Shown here piece by piece: positions 39,631 through 50,523 of a stretch of 64,000 nucleotides of DNA. Below the pieces are notes generated by a model. It was not told the DNA's origin. It was given only the letters and a program-made list of their open reading frames with translations, and searched no databases. Positions within the stretch are counted from its first letter, which is position 1. The number at the start of each line of letters is the position of its first letter. Made by a program: the position numbers and the translations under genes. Origin of the DNA: Calothrix anomala FACHB-343 (GTDB lineage: Bacteria; Cyanobacteriota; Cyanobacteriia; Cyanobacteriales; Nostocaceae). The stretch covers positions 168,994 through 232,993 of the forward strand of contig NZ_JACJQG010000002.1 in assembly GCF_014696435.1 (NCBI RefSeq). Reading direction: 5' to 3'.

Positions 39631-42087
39631 ATGCTAGAAATACTGCACGATCAAAACGCCGAACGCCATCTATCCAGAGACGAAGCTTTAGTATTACCTT
39701 TGGGTGAAGTTGGGATTGCAGATATTCCTTTAGTAGGTGGTAAAAACGCTTCTTTGGGAGAAATGATTCAGCAATTGCGGCGCAAAGGGGTGAAAGTTCC
39801 CACAGGATTTGCAACTACTGCTTACGCTTATAGATACTTTATTTCGGCTGCGGGAATAGAAACAAAACTTAGAGAAATTTTTGCAGATTTAAATGTAGAA
39901 GATGTAGATAATTTGCGCCGTTGTGGGAAACAAGCGAGATTGTTGATGCTGCAAACTCCGTTTCCGTTAGCATTACAAGAAGCGATCGCGCGTGCTTATC
40001 AAAGTTTGTGTCAGCAATATGAACCAGATACCGATGTCGCCGTTCGTTCCAGTGCGACTGCGGAAGATTTACCCGACGCCAGTTTTGCGGGACAACAAGA
40101 AACATATTTAAACGTCCACGGATTAGAAGCTGTCTTACAAGCTTGTCACAAATGCTTTGCTTCTATCTTTACCGATCGCGCTATTTCCTATCGTCAAATT
40201 AAAGGTTTTGACCACTTTAATATTGCCCTATCAGTTGGCGTACAAAAAATGGTGCGTTCTGACTTGGCTTGTTCTGGCGTCATGTTCTCCATCGACACAG
40301 AAACCGGTTTTAAAGACGCAGCTTTAATTACAGCTGCTTACGGTTTGGGTGAAAACGTCGTTCAAGGCGCAGTTAACCCAGATGAATATTTAGTATTTAA
40401 ACCCACATTAAAACAGGGATATCATCCAATTCTCAAAAAACGCTTGGGTAGTAAAGAAATCAAGATGATTTATGACCTTGGCGGCTCAAAATTGACCAAA
40501 AACGTTTCCGTCGCCCCTTCAGAACGTAACGTTTATGCACTCAATGATGAGGAAATTTTACAACTAGCTCACTGGGCTTGCATTATTGAAGAACATTATT
40601 CCCAAGTTCGTGGTGTTTACACGCCAATGGATATTGAATGGGCAAAAGATGGTATTAGTAATGAACTGTATATTGTCCAAGCCCGCCCAGAAACAGTCCA
40701 GTCGCAAAAAACAGAAAATGTCCTGCGTAGTTATCACCTCGTATTGGGAGAAAAACCCCTACCAACGCCCTTGGTTACAGGGCGGAGTGTAGGTGAGATG
40801 ATTGGTAATGGTAAAGTCCGAGTCATTTTAGATGTACATCAAATTAACCAATTCCAAGCGGGAGACATCCTAGTCACCAACCGCACCGATCCTGACTGGG
40901 AACCAATTATGAAACGCGCGAGTGCGATCGTCACTAACTCTGGTGGACGCACCTGTCACGCCGCAATTATAGCCAGAGAATTGGGAATTCCTGCGATCGT
41001 TGGTTGTGGTAATGCCACTACATTATTAAAAACTGGACAAGAAATCACCGTTAGTTGTGCAGAAGGCGAAACAGGTAAAGTTTACCCCGGTTTATTATCC
41101 TACGAAGTTCAAGAATTACCGTTAGAAAAATTGCCCCATACTCACACCCAAATTATGATGAATGTGGGCAATCCCGAAGAAGCATTTAGCTTTGCAGCTA
41201 TTCCGAATGATGGTGTAGGATTAGCCAGGATGGAATTTATTATTGCCAACCAAATCAAAGTTCATCCCTTAGCATTACTACACTTTAATGAATTAACAGA
41301 TGAACTGGCTAAATACAAAATTGCCGAATTAACTGCTGAATATGAAAACAAAGCCCAGTTCTTTATTGATAAATTAGCTGAAGGTATTGGTACGATAGCC
41401 GCAGCCTTTTATCCTAAACCTGTAATTGTCCGGTTGTCAGATTTCAAGAGTAACGAATACGCCAATCTTTTAGGTGGAAAACAATTTGAACCAACAGAAG
41501 AAAACCCGATGATTGGCTGGCGTGGTGCTTCTCGTTATTATGACGATCGCTATCGTGAAGGCTTCGCTTTAGAATGTCAAGCCATGAAGCAAGTACGAGA
41601 TAACAAAGGCTTAAGCAATGTCATTTTAATGATACCTTTCTGTCGGACACCAGAAGAAGGTCAACGTGTCTTAGCAGAGATGGCAAAAAACGGTTTAGTC
41701 AGAGGAGAAAACGGTTTACAAGTGTATGTAATGTGCGAATTACCGAGTAACGTTCTCCTAGCAGATGAATTTAGTCAAGTATTTGATGGCTTTTCTATTG
41801 GTTCCAATGATTTAACACAATTAACTCTCGGACTAGATAGAGATTCCGAATTAGTAGCCCATTTATTTGATGAAAGAAATGAAGCTGTGAAGCGAACGAT
41901 CGCCAAAGCAATCAGCACAGTCAAACAGCAAGGAAAGAAAATTGGTATTTGCGGTCAAGCACCCAGCGATTACCCAGAATTTGCTAAGTTTCTCGTAGAA
42001 CAGGGAATTGATTCTATTAGTCTCAACCCCGATTCTGTACTCAAAACCCTGTTAGAAATTGCTACGGCTGAAGCCAATAAGCGATGA
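39631..42087 (+). CDS. ppsA: Phosphoenolpyruvate synthase
   Basis: 818 residues. The N-terminal ATP-grasp domain has VGGKNASLGEMI and DVAVRSSATAEDLPDASFAGQQETYLNV. The central phosphohistidine domain has the catalytic His443 in TNSGGRTCHAAIIARELGIPAI. The C-terminal TIM barrel contains GVGLARMEF, MIGWRGASRY, GSNDLTQLTLGLDRDS and GICGQAPSDYPEF. The enzyme converts pyruvate and ATP to PEP, AMP and phosphate, feeding gluconeogenesis. It is followed 99 bp later by a universal stress protein gene. An inverted repeat lies 165 bp upstream of the ATG. Confidence 0.95.
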   Translation: MLEILHDQNAERHLSRDEALVLPLGEVGIADIPLVGGKNASLGEMIQQLRRKGVKVPTGFATTAYAYRYFISAAGIETKLREIFADLNVEDVDNLRRCGKQARLLMLQTPFPLALQEAIARAYQSLCQQYEPDTDVAVRSSATAEDLPDASFAGQQETYLNVHGLEAVLQACHKCFASIFTDRAISYRQIKGFDHFNIALSVGVQKMVRSDLACSGVMFSIDTETGFKDAALITAAYGLGENVVQGAVNPDEYLVFKPTLKQGYHPILKKRLGSKEIKMIYDLGGSKLTKNVSVAPSERNVYALNDEEILQLAHWACIIEEHYSQVRGVYTPMDIEWAKDGISNELYIVQARPETVQSQKTENVLRSYHLVLGEKPLPTPLVTGRSVGEMIGNGKVRVILDVHQINQFQAGDILVTNRTDPDWEPIMKRASAIVTNSGGRTCHAAIIARELGIPAIVGCGNATTLLKTGQEITVSCAEGETGKVYPGLLSYEVQELPLEKLPHTHTQIMMNVGNPEEAFSFAAIPNDGVGLARMEFIIANQIKVHPLALLHFNELTDELAKYKIAELTAEYENKAQFFIDKLAEGIGTIAAAFYPKPVIVRLSDFKSNEYANLLGGKQFEPTEENPMIGWRGASRYYDDRYREGFALECQAMKQVRDNKGLSNVILMIPFCRTPEEGQRVLAEMAKNGLVRGENGLQVYVMCELPSNVLLADEFSQVFDGFSIGSNDLTQLTLGLDRDSELVAHLFDERNEAVKRTIAKAISTVKQQGKKIGICGQAPSDYPEFAKFLVEQGIDSISLNPDSVLKTLLEIATAEANKR

Positions 42088-42186: not shown

Positions 42187-42714
42187 ATGTTTCACAAAAT
42201 TTTAATTGCTGTAAATAACTCAGAAGTTACTCAACAAATTTTTGACCAAGCTTTAGCTTTAGCAAAAGCAACTAATGCTCAACTAATCATCATGTATGTA
42301 CTTTCGCCATTTGATGAGCGCTACCCAACGCCTCCTGGTATAGCTACAGATGGTATTTATCCACCCTTTAGCAGTGATGATATTAACTATTATTTAGGAC
42401 AGTGGGAATCTTTAAAACAAGAAGGAATAGAACTATTAACATTATTAACCAATCAAGCGATCGCTCACGGTGTAAACGCCGAATATACTCAAGAATTTGG
42501 CGATCCTGGTCGGATGATTTGTGAAGTTGCGCGGAAAGCGCAAGCCGATTTGATTATTATCGGTCGTCGGGGATTGACTGGAATCAAAGAGTTTTTCTTA
42601 GGTAGTGTCAGTAATTATGTATTACACCATGCCCATTGCTCCGTGTTAACAGTGCAAGGTGTAATTGAAGATTCTACCTCAACACCTCAAGCAGTAGCAG
42701 TAAAATCAGCTTAA
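42187..42714 (+). CDS. Universal stress protein (UspA family)
   Basis: 175 residues. It starts KILIAVNNSEVTQQIFDQAL and ends in the ATP-binding motif IIIGRRGLTGIKEFFLGSVSNYV followed by CSVLTVQ, the GxxGx10GS pattern. A central loop (RYPTPPGIATDGIYPPFSSDD) is longer than in the shortest members. The family binds ATP and is induced by stress. It follows ppsA on the same strand and may share its transcript. Confidence 0.9.
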   Translation: MFHKILIAVNNSEVTQQIFDQALALAKATNAQLIIMYVLSPFDERYPTPPGIATDGIYPPFSSDDINYYLGQWESLKQEGIELLTLLTNQAIAHGVNAEYTQEFGDPGRMICEVARKAQADLIIIGRRGLTGIKEFFLGSVSNYVLHHAHCSVLTVQGVIEDSTSTPQAVAVKSA

Positions 42715-44468: not shown

Positions 44469-44864
44469 CTATCTTTTCTCAGCACAGCCATCTAAAACTC
44501 GATTACCGAGGATAACTGTTGCTGAGTAAGCATAATTTTTATCTGACATCCCGTCGCTACAATTAGCTTGCTTGATAATTAATAAATTATTGCCTCTACC
44601 CGACAATCGATATACCCGCACCAAGTCAGCAGGACGAGCATCAGCTTTTAAAGGTGTGACATAGGGAAACGTTTGTTTTGGCTTGTCTGGTGAAGAATAG
44701 ACAATACCGCGTTTACTGACAGTAATAGTCCAAAATGGCTCTGTACCCCTAGCAATAAATTCCTCGCTAGTAGCAGATTGTGCAACTACAAGATTATTGT
44801 TATTCATCGACAACAAACTTATCCCTAGTCCAAGAATTGCAATAGATGAGATAAAGATTTTCAT
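44469..44864 (-). CDS. COG3650-like secreted protein
   Basis: 131 residues from the ATG at 44864. A signal peptide (ISSIAILGLGISLLS, probable cleavage after VVAQ) is followed by ARGTEPFWTITVSKRGIVYSS and the C-terminal CSDGMSDKNYAYSATVILG with two Cys, typical of the COG3650 family of small envelope proteins, function unknown. The frame continues upstream into the right end of the IsrB element (23 more codons), which is not native coding sequence. The element therefore sits directly in front of this gene and may have replaced its promoter. Confidence 0.75.
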   Translation of the reverse strand: MKIFISSIAILGLGISLLSMNNNNLVVAQSATSEEFIARGTEPFWTITVSKRGIVYSSPDKPKQTFPYVTPLKADARPADLVRVYRLSGRGNNLLIIKQANCSDGMSDKNYAYSATVILGNRVLDGCAEKR

Positions 44865-44925
44865 CAGAAAAATGGGTCTGAAACCCCGTCCTTCAGCGAA
44901 GCGGAGGACGGCTTGACAAATTTGT

Positions 44926-46020
44926 CTAAGCAACTATTAATCCGTTAGAACGACGAATTAATGAGATTTTCTTAGAAAATATCTGCCCAAGTCGTTTCCA
45001 ACCTGCATCGCTGACAGATATTTGTGTTTCGGTGTCTCCTGACACATAGCCAACACCTTTTGGAGATTTAACCAAGTCACCTTTGCGTAATCCATGACGG
45101 GTTGTAGAACCACCATATTTACGCCGCATCCCTCGTTTTGCAGGAAGCATTAGATGAAGTTGGCGACGAGAGTAAGGAGGACGACGAATTACTTTCAATG
45201 GTGCGGGTGTAATTGTTACACTGCCAAACCAATTACCACCATCAACTTTTGTTGTGTGGCACTGGCGATACTCAACAAAGTGCGAAGATGCAATGGCAAC
45301 ACCATCAACCGCATGAGTATTAAACTCAGGCTGAGATTTATCTACCTTGTTTTTGGTTAGCCCTAAGTATTTGCGAGTTGATGCGGTTTGATAGCCTTCA
45401 ACTTTCGCTACTGGGGCAAACTGTTCTAGCTGCTTCAGCATCCATTTTTGTCCGACCATTACAGCAGAGAAACCTTTACCCGATTTTGCTTTTTTCCGCC
45501 CACTGGTGAGGTCTACATCTGCCCGAACATACTCGTACCGAATGGATGAGACTGGATAAATTTTACAGAGTTCAGAAACTACTCTCAGTTCAAGTTGACG
45601 GTTAGCCCGGATTGATGGAGGAAGTTTACCTTGACGGCGATTGTCAAAGCGTTTTTGACGGTGTGCGCGTTTTGAAAAATCAACCTTACGCTTAATCCTT
45701 CTACCTCTGCGACCTCGCCGCATTAACCGTCTTGCGTCCATGCGGTCACGCACTGCTAGCCAAGGCAAAATCAAGTGAGCCGCGTACAGAGTGAATTTAG
45801 CAGACTGAACACCAATGCCAGAAAACTTTTTGCCAGGGTCAACCCCGATCACAATATCTTGGGTTGCTCGTCCAGATGGTTCGCTAGTCAGTTGGACGTA
45901 GAATTGTCCACAATCCGACCAATGTTTTGTCGCTTTACCGGATTCTACCCATTTCCTAGCCCTTGCGGGTGTTGTGGGCATTAGTTGTTGGTGGTCTTTG
46001 TCTACTACAGGTACTCGCAT
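44926..46020 (-). CDS. isrB: IsrB-like RNA-guided nickase (PLMP + split RuvC, no HNH)
   Basis: 364 residues from the ATG at 46020 (an in-frame TTG at 46035 is an alternative). Domains in order: PLMP-type N-terminus MRVPVVDKDHQQLMPTTPAR; RuvC-I with Asp61 in VIGVDPGKKFSGIGV; an arginine-rich bridge helix RRGRRGRRIKRK; RuvC-II with Glu163 in RYEYVRADVD; RuvC-III with His236 and Asp239 in THAVDGVAIAS; then a C-terminal domain RRQLHLMLPAKRGMRRKYGG and HGLRKGDLV. Only about 70 residues separate RuvC-II from RuvC-III, so the HNH domain of IscB is absent. This is the IsrB architecture, shown for characterised members to nick DNA guided by omega-RNA. All expected RuvC residues are present, so it may be active. 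Confidence 0.85.
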   Translation of the reverse strand: MRVPVVDKDHQQLMPTTPARARKWVESGKATKHWSDCGQFYVQLTSEPSGRATQDIVIGVDPGKKFSGIGVQSAKFTLYAAHLILPWLAVRDRMDARRLMRRGRRGRRIKRKVDFSKRAHRQKRFDNRRQGKLPPSIRANRQLELRVVSELCKIYPVSSIRYEYVRADVDLTSGRKKAKSGKGFSAVMVGQKWMLKQLEQFAPVAKVEGYQTASTRKYLGLTKNKVDKSQPEFNTHAVDGVAIASSHFVEYRQCHTTKVDGGNWFGSVTITPAPLKVIRRPPYSRRQLHLMLPAKRGMRRKYGGSTTRHGLRKGDLVKSPKGVGYVSGDTETQISVSDAGWKRLGQIFSKKISLIRRSNGLIVA

Positions 46021-46035
46021 TTTGGTATAACCCAA

Positions 46036-46290
46036 TTACTTGTTGTTAGTCCCTTCCCACAACACAGTTAGAATGTCTTGGTGAGGGGGTCGCAGTCTTG
46101 GCGGTTCCCGTCGATTGCGAACCCCCGAACCCGAAGGGCTTTACCCAACTTCTGAACCAATCAGAATTACAGAGGGCTAAACTAGGGAAGCATTTAGCCG
46201 TGTGTGTCAAACTGTGTCTCAATGTGGTATTCACTTCTTACGTCGGAATAATTGGTTATTCCAATCCCCGCCCTAAAAGTGCGGGGTTAG
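46036..46290 (-). ncRNA. Candidate omega-RNA of IsrB
   Basis: Gene-free, strongly structured DNA directly upstream of isrB. On the minus strand the order is: hairpin with CCCCGC / GCGGGG arms (46266-46286), further pairings including AAATGCTTCCCTAG, then a GC-rich block CCCTTCGGGTTCGGGGGTTC near 46107-46140 with GGGGGTTCGC / GCGACCCCC able to pair across 46090-46125. In IscB/IsrB loci the omega-RNA is encoded just upstream of the protein and its guide comes from sequence at the 5' end, here beyond about 46290. Exact ends and folding were not computed. Confidence 0.6.
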
Positions 46291-46336
46291 TGAAAGAAGT
46301 TGAGGTTTACAATATTATAAAAAACTCGATCGCAAG

Positions 46337-47317: not shown

Positions 47318-48067
47318 CTATACACCCCCATACCGCCGTTCCCGTTGCTGGTAAGCAGATAAGGCGCGAGAAAATTCAACGCGGTCAAAATCAGGCCATA
47401 AAGTATCAGTTATATACATTTCTCCATAAGCCATTTGCCAGAGGAGGAAATTAGATAGGCGCATTTCGCCGCTAGTGCGGATTAATAAATCGGGGTCAGC
47501 AATTCCAGCTGTATATAAATGACGTTCAAATACCGCTTCATCAATTTCATCAGGTTGCAGCAGACCTTGCTGAACTTTTTGAGCGATCGCGCGACAAGCT
47601 TGTAAAATTTCCTGTCTGCCGCCATAGTTGGTAGCGACTGTAAAGCGAATGCTGCGATTATCCTTAGTTTCTGCCATTGAACGGGAAATTTCTTCTTGGA
47701 GCGATCGCGGTAGTGCATTCAAATTGCCGACAAATTGAATTTGCACATTTTCCTCTACCATTTCCCGCAATTCTTGGCGTAATACTCTTTGGAATAAAGT
47801 CATCAAAAAATCTACTTCTTCCTGGGGTCTTTTCCAGTTTTCTGTGGAAAAAGCATAAGCTGTTAACGCCTGAATTCCCCAATCTTTGCAACAACGCAGT
47901 AAATCCTTCAGCGCATCTACTCCCCGTTTATGACCCATAATTCGGGGTAGACCTTGACGTTTAGCCCATCGACCATTGCCATCCATAATCACCGCAACGT
48001 GCTTGGGCAAAAGTTCTCGTTTTAAGCCAGGGGGCAAATCTTGTAATTGAGTTTGTTGTGCTGTCAT
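47318..48067 (-). CDS. uppS: Isoprenyl transferase (undecaprenyl diphosphate synthase)
   Basis: 249 residues. The catalytic Asp29 lies in [16 protein letters not shown], followed by [25 protein letters not shown] and the C-terminal [20 protein letters not shown] and TLWPDFD. A cis-prenyltransferase making C55 lipid carrier for wall and glycan synthesis. The start codon overlaps the cdaA stop codon in an ATGA, so the two are translationally coupled. Confidence 0.95.
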
Positions 48068-48987
48068 TTTTTATCTCGAGACGCGGTCGATGGTAATCCG
48101 AATAACCGTGAAACTAGTGCTAATCCCTTAGTACTAATCTGACGACCCAAGCTTAACAAACCAGGCGCTACTGCTTCCCGATCCACCGCTGGGGATAATA
48201 GAGCTTCTAGTGTCTCTTTTAGTTTCCTAATCGTCAGTGGTCTATTGAGAATTCCTCGCTCCGCTAAGGAAATAGAACCAGTTTCTTCTGATACAACGAC
48301 ACAGATGCAATTTTCGACACGCTCAGTAATTCCCATCGCTGCCCGATGGCGTGTACCCAACTGGCGCGAGGCTGTGCGTCCCGAAAGTGGTAAAATTATA
48401 CCCGATGCCACAATCCGTGAGCCACGTATCAAAGTTGCCCCATCATGCAACAAAGTTTTTGGTTGAAATATTGTTTGGATTAATTCTTTAGTCACCTCAG
48501 CATTTAGCCTTACTCCTGGGACAGAAAAATCTCGCTCATCAATGGGGCCTTTTGTTTCTAAAATTAATAAAGCGCCAATCCGATTTTTGGACAGTTCTTT
48601 GACCGCATCAACAATTTCATCAATGACACTATCGGATTTCGGTACTGCCAAACTGGATGGTTGAAACAACTGCCGGAATTCGCCACGACCCAATTGTTCT
48701 AAAAATCGCCGAAATTCTGACTGTAGCGCCACCGCCATTGCTACCGCACAGCCAATTACTAATTTTTCTAGAACGAAATTTAATAATGGTAGCCCCAACT
48801 TATTACTGAGCGCTGAAGCTAACATCAAAATAATAAATCCCCGTACCATCCATAATGTACGGCGCTCACTAATAATAACCAAGATCATATATGTCAGCGC
48901 CAATACGAAGAAAATATCCAGAGTCCCAAGCAGCAAGGACTGCGACCATCCCAGGTTTGTCAGCCATTGCTTCCACCAATCTCTCAT
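48064..48987 (-). CDS. cdaA: Diadenylate cyclase CdaA (DAC domain)
   Basis: 307 residues from the ATG at 48987; an ATG at 49050 lies in a heptamer array and would add 21 unlikely residues. Three membrane helices (about 22-42, 48-64, 66-88) precede the DAC domain with DGA (182-184, LLHDGATLI) and RHR (213-215, [10 protein letters not shown]), the catalytic signatures. It makes c-di-AMP from two ATP at the membrane. The gene overlaps uppS by 4 bp and follows lysA, linking second-messenger synthesis to wall precursor genes by position. Confidence 0.93.
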
Positions 48988-49030
48988 GACATCTGGATTA
49001 CTATTTTGCCTCGAAATACAGCGATCTAAT

Positions 49031-49137
49031 AGTCCAGAGTCAATAGTCAATAGTCAAGAGTTGATATCGATCAACTCTGGACTTTGAACTTTAGACCTTG
49101 GACTTTGGACTTTGGACTTTGGATTTTAGATTTTAGA
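49031..49137. repeat. Heptamer repeats and palindrome between lysA and cdaA
   Basis: AGTCCAGAGT pairs with ACTCTGGACT, and GAGTTGAT / ATCAACTC form an inner palindrome at 49058-49077. TTGGACT units follow up to the lysA stop codon. A long hairpin here could separate lysA from cdaA-uppS expression. Confidence 0.75.
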
Positions 49138-50523
49138 CTATTTTTTCAGTCTTTCTGGTAGGCAATCTTGTCGGATCAAGTCTTGATATGTTTCGCGCTG
49201 CAAAAACAAATTTGCTTCGCCGTTAGCAACCACAACTGCTGCCGGTCTGGACAAGCGATTATAGTTAGATGCCATACTGTAATTGTAAGCACCTGTTCCC
49301 ATAACTACGAGAATATCCCCTGGTTCCGTTTTTGGTAGTTGGGCATTTTTAATTAAAATATCCCCGGATTCACAATGCTTACCAGCAATTGTGACAGTTT
49401 CTGTTAAGGGAGCAGACATTTTATTAGCTACTACAGCTCGGTATTGTGACTGATAGGTAATTGGTCGGGGATTATCCGACATACCGCCATCAACAGCCAC
49501 GTAGGTACGAATTTCGGGAACAACTTTAACTGAACCAATAGTGTAAGCCGTGACGCAAGCTGTGGCAACTAGCGATCGCCCTGGTTCACATAATAACTTA
49601 GGTAAAGGTAGATTCGCTTGAGTGCAAGCTGTTTGCACTACTTCACAAATCGCTTTCACCCACTCGTCAATGCTAGGAGGATCGTCCGATTCTACGTACC
49701 GGATGCCTAAACCACCTCCGACATTTAACTCTGTCACATTTAAACCATACTTAGCTGCATCTTGCAACCACTGCACCATCACCGCCGCTAAATCTTGATG
49801 GGGTTGACGCTCAAAAATTTGCGAACCAATATGAGCGTGTAAGCCTACGCAGTTCAACGCCGCAGTATGCTGACTGACAAAGGTAAAAACCTCATCTAAA
49901 TCGTTGGGATCGAAACCAAATTTACTGTCTAAGTGCCCTGTACGAATATATTCGTGGGTATGACACTCGATACCTGGTGTCAATCGCAACATAATGCGGA
50001 TAGGCCCAGAGTCGGCTAATTCCACCAAAGTCTTTAACTCATACCAGTTATCCACCACAATAGTGGCACCAGATTCAATCGCTAAAGTTAACTCAGAGCG
50101 AGATTTATTATTACCGTGGAGATAGATTTTTTCCGGGTTCATCCCCGCAGTCAGAGCGGTGTATAATTCTCCCCCAGATACAACATCAATGCCTAAGCCT
50201 TCAGACGCAACAATCGCGCAAATTGCTAGACAATTCCAAGCTTTAGAAGCATAAAGTACCTGAGATTCCCCTTGATAATATTGCTTGAAACCATCTCGAT
50301 ATTGCTGACAAGCCAAACGCAGGGTTTCTTCATCTAAAATATATAAAGGCGAACCAAACTGCTGCACCAGGGTTGTGATATCACACCCACCAATTTCCAA
50401 GCAGCCATGACTATTTACTCTAGCCGTCAAGGGAAGGAGTTCTTGATTGGGCGAAGTGTTACGCCTTAAAGGTAAATATTGACTACCAGCATTTTGAACC
50501 CCAATAGGGTGAGTCGATACCAT
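49138..50523 (-). CDS. lysA: Diaminopimelate decarboxylase
   Basis: 461 residues, PLP-dependent fold-III enzyme. The PLP Lys94 lies in VLYASKAWNC, then LHGNNKS, RLTPGIECHTHEYI, LHAHIGSQI, ELNVGGGLGIRY, CEPGRSLV, GGMSDNPRP and the active-site Cys motif CESGD. It makes lysine from meso-diaminopimelate. The N-terminal 40 residues are an extension common in cyanobacterial LysA. It lies upstream of cdaA and divergent from the GNAT gene 38 bp away. Confidence 0.95.
   Translation of the reverse strand: MVSTHPIGVQNAGSQYLPLRRNTSPNQELLPLTARVNSHGCLEIGGCDITTLVQQFGSPLYILDEETLRLACQQYRDGFKQYYQGESQVLYASKAWNCLAICAIVASEGLGIDVVSGGELYTALTAGMNPEKIYLHGNNKSRSELTLAIESGATIVVDNWYELKTLVELADSGPIRIMLRLTPGIECHTHEYIRTGHLDSKFGFDPNDLDEVFTFVSQHTAALNCVGLHAHIGSQIFERQPHQDLAAVMVQWLQDAAKYGLNVTELNVGGGLGIRYVESDDPPSIDEWVKAICEVVQTACTQANLPLPKLLCEPGRSLVATACVTAYTIGSVKVVPEIRTYVAVDGGMSDNPRPITYQSQYRAVVANKMSAPLTETVTIAGKHCESGDILIKNAQLPKTEPGDILVVMGTGAYNYSMASNYNRLSRPAAVVVANGEANLFLQRETYQDLIRQDCLPERLKK

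What the first reader, a model, noticed from the sequence alone, without database searches (positions are those of the whole stretch)
44883..46290. IsrB nickase locus with adjacent omega-RNA region and no transposase
The protein has the PLMP start, Asp61, Glu163, His236 and Asp239 of a split RuvC and the conserved C-terminal domain, but no HNH domain. Structured, gene-free DNA lies directly upstream where omega-RNA is expected, and IS200/IS605-like hairpins mark both ends. Such HNH-less members are far less studied than IscB. All expected RuvC residues are present, so this may be an active, compact RNA-guided nickase.
Basis: partly seen in the sequence, partly recalled or inferred. Interest (0 to 1): 0.75.

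Follow-up and report, generated by a model that had tools for sequence, protein, structure and literature searches.

The report
RNA-guided nickase element at start codon
A cyanobacterium carries a small mobile element that encodes a compact RNA-guided DNA-nicking enzyme of a known family (IsrB) and its guide RNA; it has landed exactly in front of a host gene's start codon, as have many of its relatives in front of unrelated genes.

Summary
Confirmed: 44865-46294 (-) is a 1430-bp IS200/IS605-type element with an intact HNH-less IsrB and, upstream, a real HEARO/omega-RNA. IsrB aligns full-length to DtIsrB (E 1e-41); all RuvC residues are kept; the RNA shows changes on both sides at 38 of 44 pairs. 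No transposase lies in the element. Cyanobacterial IsrBs with NTG TAMs are already published (PMC9581776), so the locus is a new member of a known kind.

(1) Congeners show the empty site: in the nearest one the element sits exactly between leader and ATG of a host gene, without duplication or loss; the TAM position reads ATGA. Of 141 relatives' loci, 92 had an ATGA junction definable by rule; 67 of 92 open an ORF of 60 codons or more (ATGA in general: 509 of 2701). Among non-disruptive sites 36 of 53 are gene starts (null 83 of 486). The 67 ORFs form 63 families. (2) The genome has four ORF-less elements with the same RNA type but other guides.

Guide transcription from the host promoter, use of guides in trans, and retention as cause of the start bias are inference. 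No transcript or activity was tested.

The parts
44865..46294 (-). whole element, 1430 bp, left end at 46294, right end at 44865
   Evidence: empty site of G448 (L273) gives both ends to the base
44926..46020 (-). isrB, 364 aa from ATG (or 44926-46035 from TTG), RuvC without HNH
46043..46294 (-). omega-RNA scaffold (HEARO type)
   Evidence: Rfam RF02033 44.8 bits, E 2e-7; covariation; own model R1 174.8 bits, with the window in its training set
46295..46314 (-). predicted guide: last 20 nt of the host leader, outside the element
   Evidence: inference from position; sequence next to the left end shown; no transcript seen
46314..46319 (-). TATAAT, possible -10 box of the host promoter; a start 6-8 nt downstream would leave only about 12-14 nt of guide
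   Evidence: read from the sequence; hexamer test not discriminating
46266..46286 (-). left-end hairpin CCCCGC...GCGGGG, part of the omega-RNA
   Evidence: sequence; helix 2 of the consensus
44888..44909 (-). right-end hairpin GTCCTCCGC...GAAGGAC
   Evidence: sequence; similar right ends in relatives
46082..46138 (-). 57-nt GC-rich insert inside the omega-RNA
   Evidence: only the window and L042, of 42 aligned RNAs, have letters here
44861..44864 (-). ATGA: predicted TAM at the empty site and start codon of the host gene
44469..44864 (-). host gene directly behind the right end, 131 aa, frame intact, no Pfam family
   Evidence: (searched as the longer frame 44472-44933)

Best explanation
An IsrB-type OMEGA element that inserted in this lineage directly before a host start codon. 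Shown: an intact HNH-less IsrB with its RuvC residues, an upstream omega-RNA with strong covariation, exact ends, an empty site in congeners, and ATGA directly behind the guide-matching leader at that site. Inferred: transcription beginning in the host leader gives an omega-RNA whose guide is the end of that leader; IsrB with this RNA recognises the empty allele (leader followed by ATGA) and nicks its non-target strand; repair from the copy that has the element restores it, so that the element is kept. Movement would need a TnpA acting in trans. Relatives of the ATGA type stand at start codons so often because such sites spare the coding sequence and give the guide RNA a host promoter. The four ORF-less elements could use the same IsrB with other guides.
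For: Full-length match to DtIsrB, best structural match 8dmb (modest model). RuvC residues kept. DtIsrB's TAM-reading R323 and Q326 (PMC9581776) map, by my reading of the alignment, to R348 (129 of 129) and Q351 (124 of 129). HEARO match, covariation. Clean empty site in G448; further congeners G433, G381, G359 also lack the element there. Start bias: 67 of 92 junctions against 509 of 2701; 36 of 53 non-disruptive sites against 83 of 486 or 69 of 379 for ATGA followed by A, C or G. Four stand-alone RNAs of the same type.
Against: No transcript, nick or movement was seen. The TATAAT at 46314-46319 would leave only about 12-14 nt of guide, less than the 20 nt used with DtIsrB. A -10 hexamer is no commoner before elements at starts (18 of 39) than before ordinary start-like ATGA (85 of 184). 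No TnpA with matching ends was found in the eight TnpA loci scanned. In one stand-alone insertion (L210) 14-15 nt of leader present in two congeners are missing, so the site there is not clean. 25 of 92 junctions do not open an ORF of 60 codons.
Confidence: 0.65

Rival explanations
1. The start-codon position is survival bias alone: insertion before any ATGA is random, insertions that break genes are lost, and IsrB and its guide play no part.
For: ATGA followed by A, C or G is the only clear target letter preference (1 of 92 has T at +5, against 922 of 3116 ATGA in the null; left flank without clear consensus). 8 of 61 sites still lie inside called genes.
Against: Among sites that break no gene, starts are 36 of 53 against 83 of 486 and 69 of 379 with the fifth base restricted (odds ratio 9.5). 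Sites are treated as independent and the gene caller is simple.
Confidence: 0.2
2. A passenger no longer active: IsrB and RNA are intact by chance of recent arrival, nothing is transcribed or nicked.
For: Single IsrB copy in the genome; no transposase in the element; no expression data.
Against: Catalytic and TAM residues kept across 129 proteins, RNA structure kept by compensatory change, recent insertion.
Confidence: 0.12
3. The element has become a regulator of the gene behind it (domesticated), acting through its position or through IsrB binding.
For: It stands between leader and start codon; the frame behind it stays open; 10 of 34 more distant relatives bring a Shine-Dalgarno-like core in their right end.
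Against: Not conserved in position: four congeners have the empty site and relatives stand before unrelated genes. The window's right end has no such core, as in 57 of 58 close relatives' junctions including the window.
Confidence: 0.03

Closest known systems
DtIsrB of Desulfovirgula thermocuniculi (PDB 8dmb; PMC9581776, passages and one section seen)
   Same: HNH-less RuvC protein with PLMP and C-terminal TAM domain, aligned over residues 6-366; omega-RNA upstream; TAM NTGA fits ATGA here
   Different: Different sequence (32% identity in the structural match); no activity shown here
CwIsrB (Crocosphaera) and DsIsrB (Dolichospermum), PMC9581776
   Same: IsrBs named there after two genera that I know as cyanobacteria, NTG TAM, DNA cleavage shown
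   Different: Start codons are not named in that paper's main text (0 occurrences); sequences not compared here
HEARO RNA and element (Rfam RF02033)
   Same: End-to-end match of the RNA model. That HEARO elements sit before ATGA or GTGA is recalled from Weinberg 2009, not seen
   Different: Score below Rfam's gathering threshold; protein without HNH
IscB with stand-alone omega-RNAs (Altae-Tran 2021, as cited in PMC9581776)
   Same: ORF-less elements with their own guides beside a protein-coding copy
   Different: Here of IsrB type; use in trans not tested
TnpB of IS200/IS605 elements as a retention device (PMC11870625, passages seen)
   Same: RNA-guided cut of the empty site that helps keep the element
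   Different: TnpB, not IsrB; for a nickase this is inference

Membership tests
IsrB | RuvC nuclease with catalytic D, E, H, D and bridge-helix region | tested here: met
   D66, E168, D244 in 129 of 129 and H241 in 128 of 129 proteins; alignment to DtIsrB
IsrB | no HNH domain | tested here: met
   Pfam RRXRR only; 73 residues between RuvC-II E and RuvC-III H
IsrB | N-terminal PLMP-type motif and C-terminal TAM-interacting domain | tested here: met
   LMPT motif, P in 127 of 129; R348 and Q351 conserved
IsrB | omega-RNA directly upstream of the gene | tested here: met
IsrB | RNA-guided nicking of the non-target strand | not testable with these tools
   needs biochemistry
HEARO RNA (Rfam RF02033) | score at or above Rfam's gathering threshold | tested here: not met
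   44.8 bits against 83; 10 of 16 relatives' loci also match at E up to 0.01, all below 83
IS200/IS605-type element | hairpin ends and insertion without target duplication | tested here: met
IS200/IS605-type element | TnpA (Y1) transposase in the element, or a TnpA in the genome with matching ends | tested here: not met
   none in the element; nine Y1_Tnp matches elsewhere; motif scan of eight of these loci found only chance-like short hits. A non-autonomous element remains possible
IscB | HNH domain inserted in RuvC | tested here: not met
Stand-alone omega-RNAs acting in trans | ORF-less RNA copies used by a protein encoded elsewhere | tested here: inconclusive
   four ORF-less copies present; use by this IsrB untested

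The most novel reading that the evidence does not exclude
Cyanobacterial IsrB elements of the ATGA type are start-codon dwellers: TAM and host start codon are the same letters, the guide is the host gene's own leader read from the host promoter, and ORF-less companions with the same RNA and ends spread over many genes, so that one small nickase guards a set of start sites. In part of the family the right end brings its own ribosome-binding site.
Probability: 0.4. Interest if true: 0.75.

Novelty: new member of a known kind. Interest (0 to 1): 0.55.

Why it matters
What IsrB nickases do for their elements is, to my knowledge, open. Exact ends, an empty site and a start-codon bias give a concrete, testable answer: guide = host leader, target = empty allele, TAM = start codon. 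It also says where to look for the guide's promoter, which under this model lies outside the element. Several natural guides beside one compact nickase are of practical interest too.

Tried and rejected
Rfam at gathering threshold found nothing; the permissive scan did, with one chance-like second hit. The AlphaFold model is modest (mean pLDDT 61.4, pTM 0.55; TM-score to 8dmb 0.42) and serves only as support. That the right end donates a Shine-Dalgarno site holds for 10 of 34 more distant relatives but 1 of 58 close ones, not for the window; two rules gave the same figures; ordinary start-like ATGA have such a core in 12 of 184. The -10 hexamer test was not discriminating. Eight TnpA loci were scanned for matching ends without success.

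Limits of the site counts. The 141 loci had identical ones removed, but near-identical ones remain (for example L028 and L150). The junction rule takes the first ATGA behind a right-end motif; some calls may be off (L053, L055, L188). It dropped 49 of 141 loci, among them several with a visible ATGA junction (L155, L174, L203) and distant relatives whose ends look like TTGA; these TTGA types were not tested as a group. The gene caller is a simple longest-ORF rule used alike for sites and null; p-values treat sites as independent. The 42 RNAs of the alignment are 38 of the 51 listed plus four stand-alones; the consensus structure was derived from the same alignment, which favours it in the controls. 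The stand-alone loci were partly chosen by hand.

Papers: PMC9581776 passages and section 8; PMC9755519 passages; PMC11870625 passages; PMC6847405 abstract and outline; others only as search listings. Weinberg 2009, Altae-Tran 2021, Kapitonov 2015 and a 2023 paper on transposon-encoded nucleases are not held; what I say of them is recalled or as cited by others. In the listings I saw no title or abstract start that describes the start-codon bias, but the founding papers are not in the library.

Full report
The ORF at 44926-46035 (-) matches DtIsrB over its length (E 1e-41) and Pfam RRXRR; no HNH domain is found. A structure prediction of modest quality (mean pLDDT 61.4) has 8dmb, the DtIsrB complex, as best match (E 1.8e-20, TM-score 0.42). 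In 129 relatives' proteins RuvC D66, E168 and D244 are invariant and H241 is kept in 128. PMC9581776 names R323 and Q326 as reading the TAM in DtIsrB; by my mapping through the alignment they correspond to R348 (129 of 129) and Q351 (124 of 129).

The upstream region is an omega-RNA. Rfam's HEARO model matches 46043-46294 (-) from end to end, E 2e-7, below the gathering score; ten of 16 relatives' loci give HEARO matches at E up to 0.01, all below that score, and six give none. An alignment of 42 such RNAs (38 upstream of IsrB genes, four stand-alone) folds into 44 pairs, 38 with changes on both sides. Of the cells 97.6% pair, and none of five measures is reached by any of 500 shuffles or by slid partners; the structure comes from the same alignment, and shuffles do not keep relatedness.

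The ends are exact. The same-genus genome G448, whose contig length equals that of Calothrix brevissima NIES-22, has the uninterrupted site: leader ...TGTAAACCTCAACTTCT followed at once by ATGAAAATC. The element, 44865-46294, stands between leader and start codon of a 131-residue host protein, without duplication or loss. Congeners G433, G381 and G359 also have the site without the element. Three further insertions in this genome (before L128's gene, which looks like ndhD by eye, and those of L130 and L216) are equally clean against congeners; L128 and L130 are IscB-type HEARO elements. One (L210) lacks 14-15 nt of leader found in two congeners. For L132 the nearest congener shares the insertion, and for L211 the relatives' genes are too distant to judge.

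Relatives show the same habit. Loci came from 388 genomes of the order, 161 with a match, from 80 loci of genome contigs and from 60 more stretches. After removal of identical ones 141 could be read. In 92 an ATGA junction could be defined by a rule blind to ORFs; 49 were dropped. At 67 of 92 the ATGA opens an ORF of at least 60 codons, against 509 of 2701 ATGA sites in flanking DNA and the window; where the left end was found, 39 of 62 are start-like against 187 of 2701. With a simple gene caller, 61 of these 62 sites fall into 36 starts, 17 intergenic and 8 inside genes (one too short), against 83, 403 and 1298 in the null. Among non-disruptive sites the odds ratio is 9.5 when the null is limited to ATGA followed by A, C or G (69 starts, 310 intergenic). 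The 67 ORFs form 63 families by BLASTP at 1e-5; by eye, not by search, they include dapB-, gshB-, galK- and pheS-like genes.

The genome holds more guide RNAs than proteins. The protein search finds the window's IsrB and one distant RRXRR protein, an IscB whose HNH-like stretch I read by eye. The HEARO model finds nine places, seven above threshold: the window, the IscB locus L129 and seven others without an adjacent RRXRR frame seen. A pattern for the window's right end finds 13 places, nine of them with ATGA; six of these nine open an ORF of 60 codons or more, and three do not. Four of the nine are ORF-less elements of 291-295 bp with an IsrB-type RNA. A model built from the IsrB-type RNAs finds five places: the window and these four, all in its training set. 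In the family 55 of 118 genomes have such RNAs. Of 29 stand-alone RNA loci examined, 24 had a definable junction, and 14 of these are start-like.

How it probably works. Since the scaffold begins with the element's first base, a guide 5' of it must come from host DNA. The interrupted leader is thus guide and, at the empty allele, target, with ATGA as TAM. [quoted passage not shown] A nick at the empty allele could lead to repair from a copy with the element; this step, the host promoter and a TnpA in trans are inference. The start bias would follow if only copies with a promoter in front make guides and are kept. A TATAAT stands at 46314-46319 but would leave only about 12-14 nt of guide, and such hexamers are no commoner before elements at starts (18 of 39) than before ordinary start-like ATGA (85 of 184). 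Rivals are survival bias, a dead passenger and a domesticated regulator.

What is known. HNH-less IsrBs, their RNAs and NTG-type TAMs are published, also for Crocosphaera and Dolichospermum, and stand-alone omega-RNAs are known for IscB. The locus is a new member of a known kind. The start-codon bias and IsrB-type stand-alone RNAs I did not see in the searches named in Tried and rejected; the founding papers could not be read.

Noticed in passing
L126, L127, L128, L130, L131, L132, L133 (own genome): Seven HEARO-type RNAs without an adjacent RRXRR frame, six above Rfam's threshold; at least L128, L130 and L132 stand before start codons, and the L128 right end has GGAGG before the ATG.
   Followed up: partly
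L136, L139, L141, L142 (own genome): Right ends much like the window's but followed by GATAA instead of GATGA; perhaps a related element type with another target.
   Followed up: no
L062, L074, L077, L081, L084: More distant IsrB relatives whose right ends seem to stop before TTGA rather than ATGA (by eye).
   Followed up: no
L012:198-444: Cobalamin riboswitch above threshold upstream of an IsrB element.
   Followed up: no
window 46082-46138: 57-nt GC-rich insert in the omega-RNA, in the same place only in L042 among 42 RNAs; perhaps a small dispersed repeat.
   Followed up: no
window 39631-42087, 42187-42714, 47318-48067, 48064-49050, 49138-50523: Ordinary neighbours: pyruvate phosphate dikinase-type enzyme, universal stress protein, prenyltransferase, DisA_N-type protein, pyridoxal-dependent decarboxylase.
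   Followed up: no
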